Part shown: one piece after another, positions 8,109 through 61,625 of the stretch
Layout of the letters: each line of letters begins with the position of its first letter
How positions within the stretch are numbered: position 1 is the first letter of the stretch
Source: Marinicella meishanensis
Lineage (GTDB): Bacteria > Pseudomonadota > Gammaproteobacteria > Xanthomonadales > Marinicellaceae
Assembly (NCBI RefSeq): GCF_019931145.1
Contig: NZ_JAIOUV010000001.1
Location: 1 to 64,000, forward strand
Length of the DNA: 64,000 nt
Direction: 5' to 3'
Position numbers and translations under genes: made by a program
Notes under the pieces: generated by a model
The model's input: the letters and a program-made list of their open reading frames with translations, nothing else
What the model was told of the DNA's origin: nothing
The model's database searches: none

Positions 8109-9224
8109 TCAGTCAAACCCATCTTCAAAAATGGGGGTTTCAGCAACCGATTCCCGAGCGCCGATATCGACCCGGCCGTCTTGTACCCGATTGGTGCCAA
8201 TCAGGTCTTCAAGGCCATAACTCCATTCAGAAAGGAACACCCCGGGCACCACAAACTGAGGACTGACCAAGCCTGCGTTGTACATCGGCGATGAAAAGTC
8301 TGGAACATAGGCAAAAATGGCACTGCCGGTCAATTGCGGGTCCACGCTCAGGTTACCGAATTCATCATCCACCTCACCCGTCCCCGTGACATAGTTGTTG
8401 TGGTATAAATAAATCAAACCGGTGGTGTTGTTGCTGGTGCGGCGAACCAAGAAATCGGCATCGACATGACCCCAAAAAATGTTGTTGGCCAGCAGACCTG
8501 ACGCCTCATCTTGTAAGATCACTTCCACGCCGGAAAATGCCTGTGGCAACGTGCTGTCAACGCTGTTGTTGATGACGGTGTTGTTGACAAAATAAACGCC
8601 TTGACCATAACTGTTCAATCGGATGTTCCCGGTTGAAGTCACACTGTTGTTTCCTTCAAACACATTGTTGCGGACCCGCACCGAATCGTGGCCTCTCAAC
8701 ACCTCCAAGGCCGCAACGGCTTGGGCCGTGTTGTTTTGAAAGAGGTTGCGTTCGATCACCACATCACCAGACAATGAACTCAACGCATTGACATACAGTC
8801 CCACTCCACTGCTACCCAAACCACTGGTCACTTGGGCCTGTCCATTCACAAAGCCCAAATCAGATACAGTCAATTGGCCACCTTGCTGCATGTCAATGCT
8901 CAAATTGGGACCTTGGAAATTGGCATCAAACACAGTGTTGTATACACCGGTTGACTGGGTATTGCAGCTGCTGGCATTGATGCCTTGCCAACCACCCGAT
9001 ATGGACAGGTTTTTGTCATCGAGGTTGAAATAGATGAAACCGGTGCTGCCATTGCTGTAAATGTTTGGCTTTAACCTGATTTCATCATTTTGGCCATTGT
9101 TTTTGGCTTGATCCAAAGCATCCAAAAATTCGGTGCTGTTGGTCACACAAAAAATGGCGGCTGGCGCCGGGGCTGCTTGTAGCAAAACCAAACCCATACC
9201 AAGCCATCGAAATATCGACTTCAT
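8109..9224 (-). CDS. Secreted parallel beta-helix protein with IFEDGFD tail
   Basis: 371 aa. The ATG at 9224 is chosen over the upstream in-frame one because it has AGGAG at good spacing and begins a clean signal peptide (MKSIFRWLGMGLVLLQ, cut after APA). The body has repeated N-N-x-F/V-x-x-N turns (VRNNVFEGNN, FVNNTVINN, LANNIFWG), characteristic of right-handed parallel beta-helix proteins of the pectate-lyase-like fold. No catalytic residues can be assigned. It ends in PIFEDGFD, like the neighbouring propeller protein. Probably a cell-surface or secreted polysaccharide-associated protein. Confidence 0.8.
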   Translation of the reverse strand: MKSIFRWLGMGLVLLQAAPAPAAIFCVTNSTEFLDALDQAKNNGQNDEIRLKPNIYSNGSTGFIYFNLDDKNLSISGGWQGINASSCNTQSTGVYNTVFDANFQGPNLSIDMQQGGQLTVSDLGFVNGQAQVTSGLGSSGVGLYVNALSSLSGDVVIERNLFQNNTAQAVAALEVLRGHDSVRVRNNVFEGNNSVTSTGNIRLNSYGQGVYFVNNTVINNSVDSTLPQAFSGVEVILQDEASGLLANNIFWGHVDADFLVRRTSNNTTGLIYLYHNNYVTGTGEVDDEFGNLSVDPQLTGSAIFAYVPDFSSPMYNAGLVSPQFVVPGVFLSEWSYGLEDLIGTNRVQDGRVDIGARESVAETPIFEDGFD

Positions 9225-9367
9225 GACTGTTCTCCTGACTGTTTTACCACTAAAACGAATCACAGGCGGTGAAACGAACAATCTTTTTGCCGAAACTTGC
9301 TGCCAGTCCCGAAGAGACTGACCGCATCATGACAGCTTTATTTTAGCGGTGCCTGTCCGCAGGTTGG

Positions 9368-9976
9368 TCAATTGATCTTCCAGACCCCGCTGTTGATCCA
9401 TTGGCATAACGATCTTTCCAGTTCTGTTGCCGTGTGAGACAGCTGCAGCATTTTCAGGTTGATGTGTACATTTTCTTGACCGTTTTTATGCAGTATCAAG
9501 AGCAGTTCCAGCGGATCACCCCGCCCTTTGTGAACCACATGGAGCCGGCGGATGCGTGACTTATCAATCAGGCAGATCTGTGACATCGAATGCAGTAACA
9601 AGCCATCCTCTAGCACAAACAGCCCGTGCCGATAACGGCCAGCTTTGAACAGTCTGCGACGAAACAGTTTCCAATAAAAGGAACGCCATGTCTTGTAGGC
9701 CCCAAATAAACAGGCCGCCACCAACAAGGCATTGAAGGCGATGATTGATCCTTGCATTAACTGGGCATGATCAGCAGTCAGCCACTGATCAATCAGCCCA
9801 TATGAAATACCCAACACACCTGTTGCAAACACCAGCACCCAAAACACCACCCAAATCAGTTCGATGACAGAAAAATCCACGCTGGGAAGAAACACATCGT
9901 TTTCAAGCAATGGTTGTTCAGGATCAATGAACCGATACAGTGCTTGGTCAATTTTTTTCGCGGACTGCCATTCCAT
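9368..9976 (-). CDS. Two-TM membrane protein, unknown
   Basis: 202 aa. Two hydrophobic segments around residues 37-60 and 76-98 are followed by a basic stretch (FRRRLFKAGRYRHG) and a beta-rich cytoplasmic tail of about 90 residues that alternates hydrophobic strands, reminiscent of a bacterial PH-like domain. No catalytic motif. Orphan between secreted protein genes. The start has no strong ribosome site. Confidence 0.6.
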   Translation of the reverse strand: MEWQSAKKIDQALYRFIDPEQPLLENDVFLPSVDFSVIELIWVVFWVLVFATGVLGISYGLIDQWLTADHAQLMQGSIIAFNALLVAACLFGAYKTWRSFYWKLFRRRLFKAGRYRHGLFVLEDGLLLHSMSQICLIDKSRIRRLHVVHKGRGDPLELLLILHKNGQENVHINLKMLQLSHTATELERSLCQWINSGVWKIN

Positions 9977-55680: not shown

Positions 55681-56283
55681 ATGCGCTTGTTGACGGCAAC
55701 TGACGACAAAGAACTCGATGCCACCTACTCGCCGGACGGCCATTTGCGCTCCAGCCATCCCATTCAACGCCCCCCGGACATGGCGCCTTTTCGAATCATT
55801 CGCCCGAGTTTTGACCCATTGCATGATCGCTTGATTTTCAGCACCGGACGACAGCTGTTCACCCTGAGTTATACCGGGTAAGTAACCCAAAACAATGTGC
55901 CCCTGGCCGAGCGGGTGGGCCGACCTGTTTTTCACCCAGCAGGTAACCGTTTGTTGATGATCAAAGGGCCGCATGACAGTGATGTGGCCCACATGACTGT
56001 AGACGACCACGAAGCGGCACACAGCGCGACTTACCCAGCATGGGAGCGAACCAACTTGGGTGAGGATCATGCCCTATATCAACCCATTGGCTCGCTGATT
56101 GCATTTTGGTCCGAACGCTCAGGCACCGAACAAATTTGGCTCAGCGATGGCAATGTCCCACAACAACTGACCCAAATCCCCATCGACCAATATCCAGGAC
56201 AAACGCATGAACAGTGCACTGTATTTTTGTTCCGGACAAACCTGGCCCAGCGGGGACATGACCACTTCGTGGCGCCCCGGTGA
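55681..56283 (+). pseudogene. TolB-like propeller fragment with internal stop
   Basis: One frame, broken by TAA at 55879-55881, encodes blades such as DKELDATYSPDGHL, RPVFHPAGNRLLMIKG and LIAFWSERSGTEQIWLSDG. These belong to the C-terminal propeller of CadC-type or TolB-like proteins. There is no start region and the frame ends early, so this is a remnant. Confidence 0.65.
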
Positions 56284-56455
56284 TGATCAGGAAGAGATCG
56301 TGCGCCTGTTGCTGCAAGCCGGCGGCAATCCCAACGCCAAAAACGCCGCGGGTTTGAGTCCCTATGATTTGGCCAACGAACAACGTAAACAGGGTGCCTT
56401 GCCCATCATGGAATTTTTCATGATCTTGGCCCACCGGCTGAAACAAACGGATTGA
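56270..56455 (+). pseudogene. Ankyrin-repeat fragment
   Basis: EIVRLLLQAGGNPNAKNAAG and LSPYDLANEQRKQ are a near-perfect ankyrin repeat followed by a C-terminal cap. The frame joins directly onto the decayed propeller sequence. It is the 3' end of a lost ankyrin protein gene. Confidence 0.65.
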
Positions 56456-57379: not shown

Positions 57380-57408
57380 TTGACACGATTTGTGGCGGTT
57401 GTTAACAT
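57380..57408 (+). promoter_or_regulatory. Promoter of the tRNA-like RNA operon
   Basis: TTGACA (57380-57385) and TAACAT (57403-57408) with a 17-bp spacer: a perfect -35 and a 4/6 -10. No closer promoter is possible for the first tRNA-like RNA, because only 17 bp separate it from an upstream terminator. Confidence 0.7.
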
Positions 57409-57465
57409 CCCTCCCCCCTTGAATTTTCGGCTGATCAGGCCGCAACTGAAAACAACGGAACAAAA

Positions 57466-57561
57466 ATGCCCAATGTGATTTTTGACAATGCCAAACAAAC
57501 TGTTCAGCGGCGTGGAACCGACGCCCAGCTGCGCATGCATCCGTTGTGGAGCAAGCAGTAA
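57466..57561 (+). CDS. Possible 31-aa leader peptide
   Basis: An ATG-started 31-codon frame (MPNVIFDNAKQTVQRRGTDA at its start) with a weak GGA upstream, about 55 nt into the predicted transcript. Its TAA lies five bases before the first of two alternative hairpins. The position is that of an attenuation leader peptide, but codon content gives no obvious sensor run (there are two adjacent Arg codons). Might be chance. Confidence 0.3.
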   Translation: MPNVIFDNAKQTVQRRGTDAQLRMHPLWSKQ

Positions 57562-57565
57562 CAAC

Positions 57566-57604
57566 GCCTTTCAAAATTCTGAAAGGCCGTGGATGACCTT
57601 TCAG
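57566..57604 (+). promoter_or_regulatory. Two mutually exclusive leader hairpins
   Basis: GCCTTTCA (57566-57573) can pair with TGAAAGGC (57580-57587); the overlapping CTGAAAGG (57579-57586) can pair instead with CCTTTCAG (57597-57604). Only one can form at a time, as in attenuators or riboswitch expression platforms. Confidence 0.5.
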
Positions 57605-57619
57605 GAAACCAGATTTTAT

Positions 57620-57652
57620 AAGCCCTGAGGTTGTCCCCGAAGGGCTTTTTTT
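57620..57652 (+). terminator. Intrinsic terminator upstream of the tRNA-like array
   Basis: AAGCCCT (57620-57626) pairs with AGGGCTT (57641-57647), followed by a run of seven T (57646-57652). The tRNA-like RNAs start 17 bp later, so they depend on readthrough or on processing of a longer transcript. Confidence 0.75.
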
Positions 57653-57669
57653 ATGCCCGCAAAAAATGT

Positions 57670-57782
57670 GAGGAAGTAGCTCAGTGGTAGAGCAGTGATT
57701 ACCCTTCGCCAGGCGGCACATGGGGTTCCTGATTTCGCTTCGAACGCACAGGTCGCAGGTTCGAATCCTGCCTTCCTCGCCA
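57670..57782 (+). ncRNA. tRNA-like RNA 1 with structured anticodon-arm insert
   Basis: 113 nt. Perfect acceptor stem GAGGAAG/CTTCCTC, discriminator G, encoded CCA (57780-57782); D arm GCTC/GAGC with GG in the loop; T arm GCAGG/CCTGC with loop TTCGAAT. The anticodon arm is replaced by about 40 extra nt. The insert has the core CCC (57702-57704), TTC, hairpin GCC/GGC, ACATG, GGG (57723-57725), TTCC (57726-57729). The stem closing the insert is weak here (GTG/CAC). No conventional 7-nt anticodon loop exists, so it cannot decode as it stands. Confidence 0.85.
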
Positions 57783-57811
57783 AATGATAAAAGATGAATG
57801 AAGTAGCAAAT

Positions 57812-57933
57812 AGGGAAGTAGTTCAGTGGTAGAGCGCCGGATTATTTTTACCCTCCGCTGGGAAGCAAACAGGGTTCCTTTAAAATTTTCCAGATTCCGG
57901 ATGTCGCAGGTTCGAGTCCTGCCTTCCCTGCCA
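57812..57933 (+). ncRNA. tRNA-like RNA 2 with structured anticodon-loop insert
   Basis: 122 nt. Acceptor AGGGAAG/CTTCCCT (compensatory to RNA 1), G, CCA (57931-57933); D arm GTTC/GAGC; T arm GCAGG/CCTGC with TTCGAGT. A clear 5-bp anticodon stem CCGGA (57837-57841)/TCCGG (57896-57900) encloses a 54-nt loop. That loop contains an A/U stem (TTTTA 57846-57850 / TAAAA 57881-57885), then CCC, TCC, hairpin GCT/AGC with loop GGGA, AAACA, GGG and TTCC. Confidence 0.87.
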
Positions 57934-57951
57934 ATTCAACATCCAAATTAT

Positions 57952-58084
57952 GGGGAAGTAGCTCAGTGGTAGAGCCGTGAACTTTTTTACCCTTCGCCAT
58001 CAGTTGTTATAAACTGAAGCACCAAGGGTTCCTAAAAAATTCCTACTTCATGGGTCGCAGGTTCGAATCCTGCCTTCCCCGCCA
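57952..58084 (+). ncRNA. tRNA-like RNA 3 with structured anticodon-loop insert
   Basis: 133 nt. Acceptor GGGGAAG/CTTCCCC, G, CCA (58082-58084); D arm GCTC/GAGC; T arm GCAGG/CCTGC with TTCGAAT; anticodon stem GTGAA (57977-57981)/TTCAT (58047-58051). The 65-nt loop shows the same insert in its clearest form: TTTTTTA (57983-57989)/TAAAAAA (58033-58039), CCC/GGG, TTC, GC/GC with an extended hairpin TCAGTT/AACTGA, ACCAA, and a 3' TTCC bulge. It ends 21 nt before the ATG of the downstream protein gene. Confidence 0.88.
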
Positions 58085-58105
58085 TATTTAACAAGGAGAA
58101 TGACC

Positions 58106-59968
58106 ATGGAACAAGCCACATTAAGATTATTCAAAGCGGTTCAAGTTGACAACCAAACCAAGGGCGGCACACTACTGAATACCGAAGAACGATTCATCAA
58201 ACAGGGATACGTGTTGGATGGTGCGATCAATCCCACCCATCAATTGTTGGCCGCCATCGATGCGGTCATCGGTTTATCGGGTGAACAAGCCAATGCGGCA
58301 TTTCACAAGTCTTGGAAAACCATTGAAGCAGCTGATATGGCAGTGTTGGTGAAACAGCAAGTGCTGCACTACTTGACCACTTACGGTTTTCAGTATGATG
58401 GAATCTATGATGACCACACCATTTACATTCCCAATGAATTGTTGAACGTGCCTGTCCTGACCAAGGACTTGCCGATCACTGTGGTCAAGGCCATGACGGC
58501 GGATGAGATATTGGCTGGGATCATCAAACTGAGCTCAGGCATCGCTTTGTCGGCGCAATCATTGGCAGACATCATGAGCATCGTCGAAGGCAACGCGTAT
58601 GACAGTGACTTCATCAAGCAAATCAAGAACCGAGAACTGGTGGCCTTGTTGAATGACCATTATGACATCGTGCCGGATGAGCCAGTGGCATTCTTGCGTT
58701 ATGTGGTCAGCAAGTTAACCGATCAGTCATTGCTGATAAAAAATGAAGCCTTGATCAAGCAAATGGAACAAGCCAATGGCAAGTTTTTGGATTTGTTGAT
58801 GAAAGACGCGCCTGCCAACCTGGCGTCCATTTTCTTCCGTTTCAAACCCTTGTTTTTGGCCATGAAAAAAGCCAGTAAGAATAAATCGGTTTTTAATCAG
58901 TTGCGCAGGGATGCTGATGCCATGCACGTGCCCTTACCGGTTGACTACCTGGGTCAGGTCACTGCCATGATCAAAAATCAGCAATTGGATTTCAATGAAT
59001 TGGCGGCGCAATTAAAAACCGCCAATGTGTTCAAAAAAATCCGTTTGGCTTACGCCCTGAAATATCGATTGAACTACCAACAATCAATTCTGTATAAAGT
59101 GCGTAACGGCCGCGGCTGGGCCACTGATTTCAGTTGGTCATCGGCCCATGATCAAGTGACCCAAGGTGCTTATGACCGCGTCATTGCAGCCGTCATCGAG
59201 GACCTCAAAGCCCAAGTGAATGGCCAACAGTTTTTCATTCCGGACAATGTATTTTATGCCTTGCCAGCGACTGAAAAACAGTTCACCGGTCACTTGCCCA
59301 CAGGCAGTTATGTGGTGGTGCCGGAAGACATCATTGTCGGCATCCATTGGCAGAACACCCAAAAAACGGTGGATTTGGATTTGGCCGTGATTGGTGAATC
59401 CGGAAAAATCGGTTGGGATGCGGGTTACCGATCCGGTGACAACCAGGTGTTGTTTTCCGGTGATGTGACCAGTGCGCCGGCGCCGTTGGGAGCAACTGAG
59501 CTGTTTTACCTGAAACAAGGTCCTCAGGAACCCAGAATTTTGACCGTGAATTATTATAATTTCACGCAGTCAGATGAGGTCGATTGCAAAATATTGGTGG
59601 CCCAGGAACAGCCCAAAAACTTTGGCAAAAACCATGTGGTTGATGTCAATAACTTGGTGGCTTCGGCAACCATCAAAATTGACAAAAGACAAAATGTCAT
59701 TGGTTTGGTGACCCAAGTGGATGGCGAAAATCGAGTGTATTTCAGCAACAGCAGTGTCGGCAATGCCATCACTTCTCGCGCCAGCAGCAACGCCACACAC
59801 ATCAGGAAATACCTGGTGGGTGTGACCTTAAGCTCGATCGATTTTCGCGACATTTTGACCCAAGCTGGTGCCAAAGTCTTCTCTGAATTATCCGGTGAGG
59901 ACTGTGTGGATTTGTCCCCAGAAGCCTTGGACAAAACCACCTTTTTGAAGCTGTTGATGGGTGATTGA
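58106..59968 (+). CDS. TROVE-like (?) / TerD-like protein linked to tRNA-like RNAs
   Basis: 620 aa from ATG 58106, AAGGAG seven bases upstream; the ATG at 58100 is too close to that site. No signal peptide or membrane helix. Residues 1-370 are helical repeats; NQLRRDADAM (about 264) followed 40 residues later by VFKKIRLAYALKYRL resembles, by eye, the pairs of helices in the TROVE module of Ro60/Rsr, where KARIHPFHxLxAL is conserved. Residues about 400-490 look TerD-like (IIVGIHWQN, VDLDLAVIG, GWDAGYRSGDN, LTVNYYN). The last 130 residues are beta-rich and unassigned. Co-transcription with three tRNA-like RNAs suggests an RNA-binding role. Both domain calls need profile searches. Confidence 0.7.
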   Translation: MEQATLRLFKAVQVDNQTKGGTLLNTEERFIKQGYVLDGAINPTHQLLAAIDAVIGLSGEQANAAFHKSWKTIEAADMAVLVKQQVLHYLTTYGFQYDGIYDDHTIYIPNELLNVPVLTKDLPITVVKAMTADEILAGIIKLSSGIALSAQSLADIMSIVEGNAYDSDFIKQIKNRELVALLNDHYDIVPDEPVAFLRYVVSKLTDQSLLIKNEALIKQMEQANGKFLDLLMKDAPANLASIFFRFKPLFLAMKKASKNKSVFNQLRRDADAMHVPLPVDYLGQVTAMIKNQQLDFNELAAQLKTANVFKKIRLAYALKYRLNYQQSILYKVRNGRGWATDFSWSSAHDQVTQGAYDRVIAAVIEDLKAQVNGQQFFIPDNVFYALPATEKQFTGHLPTGSYVVVPEDIIVGIHWQNTQKTVDLDLAVIGESGKIGWDAGYRSGDNQVLFSGDVTSAPAPLGATELFYLKQGPQEPRILTVNYYNFTQSDEVDCKILVAQEQPKNFGKNHVVDVNNLVASATIKIDKRQNVIGLVTQVDGENRVYFSNSSVGNAITSRASSNATHIRKYLVGVTLSSIDFRDILTQAGAKVFSELSGEDCVDLSPEALDKTTFLKLLMGD

Positions 59969-59969
59969 G

Positions 59970-60005
59970 ACCAAGGTGCGGCATCTGTCGCACCTTGGTT
60001 TTTAT
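59970..60005 (+). terminator. Intrinsic terminator after the TerD-like gene
   Basis: A 10-bp stem CCAAGGTGCG (59971-59980)/CGCACCTTGG (59989-59998) followed by TTTTTAT. Strong terminator, placed between the two protein genes, so the HEAT protein would be made at a lower level or from its own promoter. Confidence 0.88.
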
Positions 60006-60035
60006 ATAAATTGTGACAAAACACAGAGGAATGAA

Positions 60036-61625
60036 ATGGATTTTTACCAACGATTCAAAACACAGGCAGAGATTTTGCAGCAAAACAAATGGTACATGTC
60101 TGACCAATTGGTGAAGGACAAAATCAAGGCCCTTGAGTACATTGGTTTACATGGCCAACCCACCGATGTGCCACATTTAATGAGGTATGTCTCTGACACC
60201 AAAAACAAGGCCATTCGGTCAGCCGCCGCACAGACCATCGCCACCTTATTGGATGACCAAACAAAACCGGTGGATTGGCTGAGGCTGTATCATGGCTGTC
60301 ACTTCAGTTATGAGTTTGATGCCAAACAATCGCTGCATAAATTGACGGGATTTCCAGCCGACCAAGCAGCCCATTTGTTTGGCCTGATGACTTTGCATCG
60401 CGACGGTTTCATTCGTGAAGCGGCCCTGCAGCGACTCAAGCAATGCCAGTCAGACAATGCCTTGCCATACATCTTGATGCGGCTGAATGATTGGGTGCCC
60501 CAAGTCCAAAAAATCGCCCGGGACATGTTCCTGCAATGCTTGCCTGCGCTGTCATTACAACAATTGACCAGACGACATGACTTATTTGCCTGGTTGGCCA
60601 GATCAACCCGACATGACCTGACGCACGTCACCCAACAGGTGACTGCACATATGGGCCGTACAGAACACAGGGGGGCGTTGTTGGACATCTTGATTGCCGG
60701 ACCATACCATGAACGGTTGTTTTGTCTGAAACACATGCCCCAAAACATCAATCGACTGAGTGAGTTGATTGGCGTCGCCTTGCAAGACCCGGCCCCAGAA
60801 ATCAGGCAATGGGGCGCTCGAAAATTACCCCAAGATGCCTTGTTTGTGCCCCGCATCAAAAAGCTGCTCAAGGACAAAGCCACGCGGGTCAGAATCGCTG
60901 CGCTCAGGCGGATACCTGAGAACCATTGGCCAGATTACACCGATGTGCTCAAACTGGCGGTTTTTGATGGGTGTCGTTCGATCAGAGAAAGCGCCCGGTT
61001 TGCTCTCAAACACATTGGCGTGTTTGCGGATAACAATGATCTTGCGGCCCTTTACCGCCAGCGGCTGCACAGTGAACAACCCATCACAGTTGGCATCATC
61101 GCCGGACTGGGAGAAACTGGGACCATTGATGACAGCAAATTGTTGACAGGATATTTGTCTGACAGCAGAAGTAAAATCAGGGCCGCCGCCTTGCTGGCTT
61201 TACAGCAAATCAATGCAACAGGCATGGAAGCCCGTTTGATCAATGGCTTGAAGGATGTGGGCAAAGTCAGAAAGCTGTGTTCAGCCATCTTGATTGAACA
61301 CCCACCCAAAGACCTGGATGCGTTGATTGCGGTCAGTGAACAAGGCTCATCAGGCAGCCGCAAAGAAGCCTTTAAAGTCTTGCACTCGCTGGGTGGGTTA
61401 GAAGCCTTGAAATACATATTGATATTCATCTTGGATGAAGACCCAGACCTCGCCGACTTTGCCGCCGTTTATTATGACCACTGGTTTGAGAAATTTGGCA
61501 CCATGCCATGGTTTATCCACAACAAGGAAACCTGGCAAGAGGTGATGGACGTTTGGGACAAACTCAACCACAAGATCCCTGATTATCATCCGGGTATGGA
61601 TCGCTTGTTGCGCTCATTGGGTTGA
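60036..61625 (+). CDS. HEAT-repeat protein of the tRNA-like RNA locus
   Basis: 529 aa from ATG 60036 with GAGGA five bases upstream. The whole protein is an alpha-solenoid of HEAT/Armadillo-type repeats: DVPHLMRYVSDTKNKAIRSA, DPAPEIRQWGARKLP, DKATRVRIAALRRIP, SDSRSKIRAAALLALQQI are typical units, spaced 30-40 residues. No enzyme motif. It follows the TerD-like gene by 67 bp across a terminator. A scaffold for RNA or for the partner protein is plausible, since HEAT solenoids recur in tRNA-binding and RNP proteins. Function unknown. Confidence 0.85.
   Translation: MDFYQRFKTQAEILQQNKWYMSDQLVKDKIKALEYIGLHGQPTDVPHLMRYVSDTKNKAIRSAAAQTIATLLDDQTKPVDWLRLYHGCHFSYEFDAKQSLHKLTGFPADQAAHLFGLMTLHRDGFIREAALQRLKQCQSDNALPYILMRLNDWVPQVQKIARDMFLQCLPALSLQQLTRRHDLFAWLARSTRHDLTHVTQQVTAHMGRTEHRGALLDILIAGPYHERLFCLKHMPQNINRLSELIGVALQDPAPEIRQWGARKLPQDALFVPRIKKLLKDKATRVRIAALRRIPENHWPDYTDVLKLAVFDGCRSIRESARFALKHIGVFADNNDLAALYRQRLHSEQPITVGIIAGLGETGTIDDSKLLTGYLSDSRSKIRAAALLALQQINATGMEARLINGLKDVGKVRKLCSAILIEHPPKDLDALIAVSEQGSSGSRKEAFKVLHSLGGLEALKYILIFILDEDPDLADFAAVYYDHWFEKFGTMPWFIHNKETWQEVMDVWDKLNHKIPDYHPGMDRLLRSLG

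What the first reader, a model, noticed from the sequence alone, without database searches (positions are those of the whole stretch)
57380..61625. A tRNA-like RNA array fused to a Ro-like protein operon
One promoter appears to drive three tRNA-like RNAs, a 620-aa protein and a HEAT protein. Each RNA has a complete tRNA body but an expanded anticodon region. Bacterial Y RNAs (YrlA type) also join a tRNA-mimicking module to a stem bound by Ro60/Rsr, and they are encoded beside their Ro gene. Here the layout is similar but with tRNA ends intact and CCA encoded. I infer a ribonucleoprotein in which the protein uses tRNA-shaped RNAs as guides, decoys or substrates, possibly for RNA repair or quality control. 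The gene order and RNA form are seen; the function is not.
Basis: partly seen in the sequence, partly recalled or inferred. Interest (0 to 1): 0.92.

Follow-up and report, generated by a model that had tools for sequence, protein, structure and literature searches.

The report
tRNA-mimic RNAs with partner repair protein
The three tRNA-shaped RNAs and their neighbour gene belong to an apparently undescribed RNA-plus-protein system, found in phages, bacteria and archaea, in which a shared RNA handle carries pieces of tRNA beside a dedicated protein, sometimes near RNA-repair enzymes.

Summary
The RNAs are real: three tRNA bodies, each with a hairpin inserted in the anticodon loop, upstream of a 620-aa gene. 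The insert is one form of a new RNA motif: a covarying two-helix handle (P1, A-x-A, P2, UUCCU / UA, CG). I found the protein family in 76 viral and 80 cellular loci (phages, many bacterial groups, archaea). A covariance model of the handle matches within 1 kb of the gene in 67 of 76 and 69 of 80; every match listed (172 and 139) is on the gene's strand. A search of viral contigs with the motif alone led back to the protein in 18 of 22. The far end of the handle carries parts of tRNA in a significant minority of RNAs: anticodon arms, T arms, whole tRNAs, even circularly permuted ones. RtcB ligase lies within 5 kb in 16 of 156 loci; RlaP-type and PolyA_pol/CCA-type enzymes in fewer. The protein has a TerD-like C-terminal part and an unmatched helical N-terminus; TROVE/Ro membership was not met. 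Best reading: an RNP that displays tRNA parts for tRNA repair or protection. Binding and function are inferred.

The parts
57670..57782 (+). tRNA-like RNA 1; insert motif 57699-57730 in the anticodon region; anticodon stem weak (3 of 5 pairs); GCCA at the end
   Evidence: Rfam tRNA 54.7 bits; ARAGORN -i; motif pattern
57812..57933 (+). tRNA-like RNA 2; insert motif 57848-57879, after U33 of the anticodon loop; 5-bp anticodon stem; GCCA at the end
   Evidence: Rfam tRNA 56.9 bits
57952..58084 (+). tRNA-like RNA 3; insert 57987-58033 (A-C-C in place of A-x-A); 5-bp anticodon stem; fold z -3.3; GCCA at the end
   Evidence: Rfam tRNA 58.0 bits; insert limits read
58106..59968 (+). 620-aa partner protein: helical N-terminal part (about 1-385) plus TerD-like beta-rich part (about 390-550)
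60036..61625 (+). 529-aa HEAT-repeat protein; a 28.7% relative sits directly after the partner gene in Desulfobacterales locus L113, the only one found among 156 loci
57620..57647 (+). terminator-like hairpin plus U run between the 57380 promoter-like site and the RNAs (z -1.7)
   Evidence: U run read
59967..60002 (+). terminator-like hairpin (-27.1 kcal/mol, z -7.7) between the partner gene and the HEAT gene
57380..57408 (+). sigma-70-like promoter match, 10 of 12; may serve the unit that ends at the first hairpin

Best explanation
A ribonucleoprotein for tRNA protection and repair that works like, but is not, a Ro-Y RNA particle. Each small RNA has a constant handle (helix P1, A-x-A/C internal loop, helix P2, UUCCU bulge) and a variable end that in many cases imitates part of a tRNA: an anticodon arm, a D-like arm plus anticodon arm, a T arm plus D-like arm, or a whole tRNA opened at its anticodon loop. 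The partner protein binds the handle, and the tRNA-shaped end docks or occupies tRNA-handling enzymes. It thereby brings RtcB-type ligases and end-healing enzymes to broken tRNAs, or absorbs enzymes that would cut tRNA, as during phage-host conflict. Shown: the RNA motif, its covariation, its tie to the gene, the enrichment of tRNA-like ends, and the repair neighbours in part of the loci. Inferred: that the protein binds the handle, and the docking or repair function.
For: Tie to the gene: covariance model matches at E<=0.01 in 68 of 76 viral and 70 of 80 cellular loci, within 1 kb of the gene in 67 and 69; all 172 matches listed at E<=0.1 and all 139 at E<=0.01 are on the gene's strand. Of 102 loci that gave no training sequence, 84 match (some loci are near-duplicates of each other). 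In reverse, a DNA-only pattern in viral contigs gave 22 contigs, 18 of which encode the protein. In 61 genomes of relatives, gene and insert pattern occur in the same two. Structure: with sequence-only selection, 148 of 183 candidates pair 5 of 5 in P2 against 38 after permutation; on 61 aligned hairpins 98.5% of cells pair, 188 double changes against 53 shuffled. tRNA mimicry: anticodon-like arms 18 of 152 against 4.75 in shuffles (max 11; two of the 18 are T arms); T-loop arms 6 against 0.06 (max 2). Repair: RtcB by BLAST within 5 kb in 16 of 156 loci, 15 on the gene's strand; representatives of two other clusters are RlaP (PF10127; 5 loci) and PolyA_pol (4 loci). The gene lies inside the tRNA arrays of cyanophages S-CRM01 and S-CBWM1.
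Against: No binding, expression or repair data. RtcB is linked in only 16 of 156 loci, 12 of them Bacteroidota, and no background rate was measured; in the window's own genome both RtcB genes lie on other contigs. Most apical segments (134 of 152) do not pass the anticodon-arm test at stem >=4. 18 of 102 non-training loci show no motif at E<=0.01, of which 7 start within 200 bases of a contig edge. The permutation control keeps base composition but not the relatedness of sequences. R2 matches neither the window nor its genome: the window holds only the tRNA-embedded order. No nuclease or known RNA-binding fold was recognised in the protein.
Confidence: 0.5

Rival explanations
1. Bait or sensor system against anticodon nucleases: the RNAs display tRNA parts as decoys, and cleavage or capture is read by the protein, without a direct repair role.
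For: Displayed anticodon-like arms include UUU, UUC, UUG and GUU, types cut by known anticodon nucleases (recalled). Genes lie in tRNA arrays of two cyanophages. Loci hold several different RNAs, e.g. 6 matches in Phass-1.
Against: T-arm and D-like displays are not anticodon baits. Repair ligases near the gene in 16 of 156 loci fit repair at least as well.
Confidence: 0.22
2. A tRNA splicing system: the handle is an intron-like element cut out of tRNA (or out of permuted pre-tRNA) and RtcB joins the halves.
For: In tRNA-type RNAs with at least 4 of 5 anticodon-stem pairs, the formal junction leaves U33 in 13 of 20 (14 if L010 is read by hand) and purine 37 in 20 of 20 (no shuffle control for this). 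RtcB neighbours. Permuted forms in L016, L024 and L130.
Against: Stand-alone hairpins with an intact anticodon-like arm have nothing to splice. U33 is missing in five of the six Flavobacteriia RNAs counted (L154, L164, L174, L177, L185; not L169). Permuted forms in L016 and L024 have acceptor stems closed by 2-7 nt (my reading). The distance from motif to loop varies.
Confidence: 0.13
3. Cis-acting leader: the hairpins are autoregulatory binding sites of the gene's own mRNA.
For: At E<=0.01, 122 of 168 viral and 134 of 139 cellular matches lie within 500 nt upstream on the same strand, some just before the start codon.
Against: Multi-copy arrays, copies downstream (19 of 168 viral matches; 6 in Phass-1 between gene and tmRNA), copies more than 1 kb away (14 of 168 viral, 2 of 139 cellular), and tRNA mimicry are not needed for a leader.
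Confidence: 0.09
4. Ordinary intron-bearing tRNAs or decayed tRNA genes beside an unrelated gene.
For: ARAGORN with introns and Rfam both call them tRNA.
Against: The same covarying motif occurs without any tRNA body next to the same gene family across bacteria, archaea and phages.
Confidence: 0.03

Closest known systems
Ro60/Rsr-Y RNA particles; Salmonella rsr-yrlBA-rtcBA operon
   Same: Small RNA with a tRNA-like domain encoded beside its protein partner, with RtcB in the operon (passages of PMC7790460; the constant protein-binding stem of Y RNAs is recalled).
   Different: Protein has no TROVE match by Pfam, fold or hhalign and no vWA match; no RNA matched a Y RNA family at Rfam's cut-offs in the window and 24 loci searched.
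MXAN_6230/SCO0854 family RING protein (NCBIfam NF041916)
   Same: Shares a C-terminal stretch: 22 of 61 members match at E<=0.01, below the family's own cut-off for P0001 (26 of 600 bits); hhalign of A5 against a G043 protein of this kind, probability 93, E 2.8e-7 over 126 columns.
   Different: Longer; the name implies a RING domain; no RNA motif at the one representative locus tested (G043, short flanks).
TerD family
   Same: Fold of the C-terminal part: best PDB match 9a6r chain B (SCP2; TerD identity recalled), E 3.8e-5; a TerD-like phage protein in BFVD, E 3.3e-4.
   Different: No Pfam TerD match in 61 members; fused to a large helical part.
Distant whole-length relatives among viral predicted structures (A0A8S5LVH0, H6SUA9 of Campylobacter virus IBB35, A0A291I9M6 of Lactobacillus phage LpeD)
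   Same: Foldseek E 4e-19 to 3e-14 over nearly the whole model, TM about 0.5.
   Different: Only 13-15% identity; whether they have the RNAs was not tested.
Archaeal and eukaryal tRNA introns; permuted tRNA genes
   Same: Insert in the anticodon loop, permuted order, RtcB ligase (recalled; PMC4090602 and PMC6379350 seen in a search listing only).
   Different: Insert between positions 33 and 34 rather than one nucleotide 3' of the anticodon; no bulge-helix-bulge that I could see; many RNAs have no tRNA to restore.
Jumbo-phage RNA repair sets (tRNAs, RtcB, Rnl, a few ROT/TROVE)
   Same: Same setting: phage tRNAs and RNA repair (PMC7824862, passages read).
   Different: Neither this protein nor this RNA is named in the passages read.

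Membership tests
TROVE/Ro60 protein | TROVE domain PF05731 | tested here: not met
   0 of 61 members match Pfam TROVE at E<=0.01; hhalign of the N-terminal profile against one true Rsr sequence (no alignment on that side), probability 0.3%
TROVE/Ro60 protein | Ro-like HEAT ring fold | tested here: inconclusive
   Full model: D. radiodurans Rsr 2nvo is 6th at E 0.13, probability 0.25. N-terminal part alone: no match at E<=0.001 and Rsr not in the 50 rows shown of 299
TROVE/Ro60 protein | C-terminal vWA domain | tested here: not met
   No Pfam vWA match at E<=0.01; the C-terminal part is TerD-like by fold
Y RNA / YrlA | Match to a curated Y RNA family | tested here: not met
   Rfam gathering searches of the window and 24 loci gave only tRNA, tmRNA, Flavo-1 and DUF805b
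Y RNA / YrlA | tRNA-like module on a constant stem, beside the partner gene | tested here: met
   tRNA-like modules in part of the RNAs and position by the gene; that the stem binds the protein is not tested
RNA repair operon | RtcB or other RNA-repair enzyme in the neighbourhood | tested here: met
   In a minority: RtcB 16 of 156 loci, RlaP cluster 5, PolyA_pol cluster 4; not in the window itself
TerD family | TerD fold | tested here: met
   Foldseek E 3.8e-5 to 9a6r chain B
TerD family | Pfam TerD sequence match | tested here: not met
   0 of 61 at E<=0.01
tRNA | Cloverleaf with acceptor, D and T arms | tested here: met
   Three window RNAs over the Rfam cut-off
tRNA | Intact 7-nt anticodon loop | tested here: not met
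   Interrupted by the hairpin
RNP with the partner protein | Protein binds the RNA | not testable with these tools
   Needs pull-down or a binding assay

The most novel reading that the evidence does not exclude
A new class of ribonucleoprotein shared by phages, bacteria and archaea: one protein family carries an exchangeable set of RNAs, all on the same handle, each showing a different part of a tRNA, so that tRNA damage is sensed, absorbed or repaired part by part. The arrays would be turned over by conflict between phages and hosts.
Probability: 0.45. Interest if true: 0.95.

Novelty: categorically new. Interest (0 to 1): 0.9.

Why it matters
It would be another design, besides Y RNAs and phage tRNA arrays, for using tRNA look-alikes in RNA quality control, and one not related to TROVE by the tests made here. 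It gives RtcB, whose bacterial substrates were called unknown in the abstract of PMC7790460, a candidate RNA partner. The set is compact (one gene plus RNAs of about 45-135 nt) and present in named phages (S-CRM01, S-CBWM1, Phass-1) and in cultured bacteria named, so it can be tested directly.

Tried and rejected
TROVE membership: rejected. Ordinary tRNA introns: rejected, because the motif occurs without tRNA. Single operon from the 57380 promoter: rejected. P0001 alone found no relative in genome contigs or plasmids and only a weak PHROG match (E 0.018); the two-sequence profile found none in viral contigs, single phage proteins only a copy of S-CRM01 or nothing; the wider profile found 76 loci. 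Three further phage-database searches with other members returned the same three phages. Class search: own, G135 and a weak G173 hit of 274; the G173 hit did not hold with the larger profile (E 0.042). R2 finds nothing in the window or its own genome. Covariance model R1 was built with a mistyped structure and not used. My first reading of some apical loops as anticodon loops was out of register; only the shuffle-controlled counts are relied on. BA-type motif counts partly bridge two neighbouring hairpins, so those totals are somewhat inflated; the covariance-model counts are the better ones, although R2 was trained on hairpins from 54 of the 156 loci. The 23 tRNA-type RNAs were picked by me (36 candidates, some of them chance bridges), not a census. 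Rows dropped: W1, one G010 RNA and L179 from the U33 count (fewer than 4 anticodon-stem pairs), apical segments over 62 nt, those over 45 nt that hold a second UUCCU, and those without 5 of 5 P2 pairs.
Full report
1. What is in the window. Three tRNA-like RNAs lie head to tail upstream of a 620-aa gene and a HEAT-repeat gene. Rfam's tRNA model matches each from first to last position (54.7-58.0 bits); ARAGORN finds them only if introns are allowed. Acceptor, D and T arms are regular and GCCA is encoded. The inserts share two strands, UUACCCU(U/C)CGC and GCAxA ... GGGUUCCU; in RNA 3 the A-x-A reads A-C-C. Free-energy folding alone beats shuffles only for RNA 3.

2. A relative in the same genus. 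Among 61 genomes of relatives only the window's own and one of the same genus (G010) have the protein (74% identity). G010 also has two RNAs over the Rfam cut-off and one degenerate copy upstream, and rtcB as the next gene (it clusters with an RtcB confirmed by Pfam). A pattern for the insert hits exactly the same two genomes of 61.

3. The protein family is wide. tblastn found full-length relatives in three named phages, Synechococcus S-CRM01 and S-CBWM1 and gut phage Phass-1; in the two cyanophages the gene lies inside the tRNA array, and in Phass-1 a tRNA-Ser is upstream. A profile search gave 76 IMG/VR loci and 99 relatives, 80 kept, in genome contigs: Gammaproteobacteria, Desulfobacterota, Chloroflexota, Bacteroidota, Selenomonadaceae, Clostridia, and archaea including Lokiarchaeota, Thermoplasmata and Pacearchaeota (record titles). 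Many are metagenome bins, so host assignment can be wrong, and some loci are near-duplicates. No plasmid matched with two queries.

4. The RNA family. Reading upstream of these genes showed the same two strands in another order: GGCAxA-P2-UUCCU ... UA-P2'-CGCC as a stand-alone hairpin. A strict structural scan found 109 motifs in the 76 viral loci, 107 on the gene's strand, 80 within 500 nt upstream, against 3 in block-shuffled sequence; in the 80 cellular loci 129, of which 124 on the gene's strand, against 2. Some of these bridge neighbouring hairpins. That scan asks for pairing, so I repeated it by sequence alone: of 183 candidates 148 pair in all five P2 positions and 167 in both outer P1 positions, against 38 and 103 after permuting partners. 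On 61 aligned hairpins 98.5% of pair cells form, with 188 double changes against 53 in shuffles; slid structures reach 36-55%. These 61 were chosen from hairpins that pair, so one search is the fairer test.

5. Tie between RNA and gene. A covariance model (R2) gives 172 matches in the viral loci at E<=0.1 (168 at E<=0.01) and 139 in the cellular ones at E<=0.01, all on the gene's strand. At E<=0.01 it hits 68 of 76 viral and 70 of 80 cellular loci, within 1 kb of the gene in 67 and 69. By position, 122 of 168 viral matches lie within 500 nt upstream and 19 within 600 nt downstream; 134 of 139 cellular matches lie within 500 nt upstream (distances are from the tblastn match, not an annotated start). 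Of 102 loci that gave no training sequence, 84 match. Of the cellular misses, L112 (the G010 locus) has the tRNA-embedded form only. All three named phages match, 3, 2 and 6 times. Starting from DNA alone, one exact pattern in IMG/VR gave 22 contigs, of which 15 carry the protein in the stretch fetched and 3 more elsewhere on the record; at least four of these contigs were already among the 76. The four without are records of 6 to 40 kb, possibly fragments.

6. What the RNAs carry. In 152 distinct apical segments from 96 loci, 7-nt loops with U at position 33 and purine at 37 on a stem of four or more occur 18 times against 4.75 (maximum 11 in 300 dinucleotide shuffles), and T-loop arms 6 times against 0.06 (maximum 2). 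Two of the 18 are T arms, which leaves 16. Examples: L013 CCGGG-CUGAAGA-CCCGG, L186 UUCGA-CUGUUAA-UCGAA, L176 GCUGG-UUCGAAU-CCAGC followed by a CUC-GAAA-GAG arm. Read by eye, L162, L167 and L051 show a D-like arm followed by an anticodon arm. The remaining 134 segments did not pass the anticodon-arm test, so what they carry is open. Other RNAs are whole tRNAs: with the handle in the anticodon loop (23 that I picked) or circularly permuted (L016 twice, L024, L130), with the acceptor stem closed by a short linker in those of L016 and L024. In the tRNA type, 20 of 23 have at least 4 of 5 anticodon-stem pairs; taken across the insert, position 37 is a purine in 20 of 20 and position 33 is U in 13 of 20 (no shuffle control; L010 was read one base off by the script and has U33 by hand; five of the seven exceptions are Flavobacteriia). 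No Rfam family other than tRNA matched these RNAs at its cut-off in the window and 24 loci searched.

7. The protein. AlphaFold with 61 sequences gives mean pLDDT 90 and pTM 0.89. The only PDB match below E 0.001 is 9a6r chain B, SCP2 (E 3.8e-5), whose TerD identity I recall. Among viral predicted structures 14 pass E 0.001; the best match nearly the whole model at 13-15% identity (A0A8S5LVH0 'tellurium resistant like', a Campylobacter virus IBB35 protein, a Lactobacillus phage LpeD protein), and one is a TerD-like phage protein; I did not look for RNAs beside these. 22 of 61 members match NF041916, and hhalign supports the shared C-terminal stretch. Rsr of Deinococcus appears sixth at E 0.13 for the whole model, but the N-terminal part alone (pLDDT 86) has no significant match and its profile does not align with a true Rsr. 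No Pfam family was found in the 61 beyond two single weak hits.

8. Neighbours. Within 5 kb in 156 loci the commonest recurring neighbour is RtcB: 16 loci, 15 on the gene's strand, 12 of them Bacteroidota, the rest the G010 relative, a Desulfobacterales and a Pacearchaeota bin, and one viral contig. Representatives of other clusters are RlaP, 'RNA repair pathway DNA polymerase beta family' (5 loci), PolyA_pol, a family that includes CCA-adding enzymes (recalled; 4 loci), and a WYL-domain protein (10 loci, representative on the opposite strand). The Desulfobacterales locus L113 has RtcB, then, after two small ORFs, RNAs, the partner gene and a relative of the window's HEAT protein. No background rate was measured. 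The window's own genome has two RtcB genes on other contigs.

9. Mechanism. The constant handle beside one protein family implies an RNA-protein partnership; the changing end is often tRNA-shaped; repair enzymes recur nearby in part of the loci. I therefore think the particle presents tRNA parts to enzymes that repair or cut tRNA (0.5). A pure bait or sensor (0.22), tRNA splicing (0.13) and a cis leader (0.09) remain. Purine 37 and U33 across the insert keep splicing alive; stand-alone anticodon arms speak against it as a general role.

10. Known or new. Closest in working is the Ro-Y RNA system with its rtcBA neighbours (PMC7790460, passages read). By the tests made neither RNA nor protein belongs to it. 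Nine paper searches of the open PMC set listed no paper that I recognised as describing this system; I judged from titles and abstract starts, and read passages of five papers. The review most likely to mention the protein (Burroughs and Aravind 2016) was not held, so prior notice of the protein cannot be excluded.

Noticed in passing
window 57380-57660: Promoter-like site, a 31-codon ORF (about 57467-57562, my reading) and a U-tailed hairpin may form a small unit of their own upstream of the RNAs.
   Followed up: no
window 55681-56455: Several short overlapping frames with TolB-like and ankyrin-like pieces (my reading of the translations) suggest a decayed gene upstream.
   Followed up: no
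L194 (G135), 1249-2982: The one class genome of 143 with a TROVE match also holds a member of the new protein family on another contig; the assembly is 7% contaminated.
   Followed up: partly
control genome Deinobacterium chartae: Of 14 control genomes, only this one rings for TROVE and only this one for the NF041916 family.
   Followed up: no
L173 2298-4046 (-) and nine similar loci: WYL domain joined to a PhyH-like domain on the strand opposite the gene in Flavobacteria; a possible regulator.
   Followed up: no
L130, about 1500-1660 nt upstream of the match: Ktedonobacter racemifer has a permuted tRNA-type RNA and a stand-alone hairpin far upstream of the gene.
   Followed up: no
L008 9174-9638: Phage Phass-1 has six handle RNAs in a row just before its tmRNA; an annotated 300-base CDS (9181-9480) overlaps four of them and may be spurious.
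   Followed up: no
L002 3527-3652 (-): Degenerate third copy between the two intact RNAs of G010, a sign of turnover of the array.
   Followed up: no
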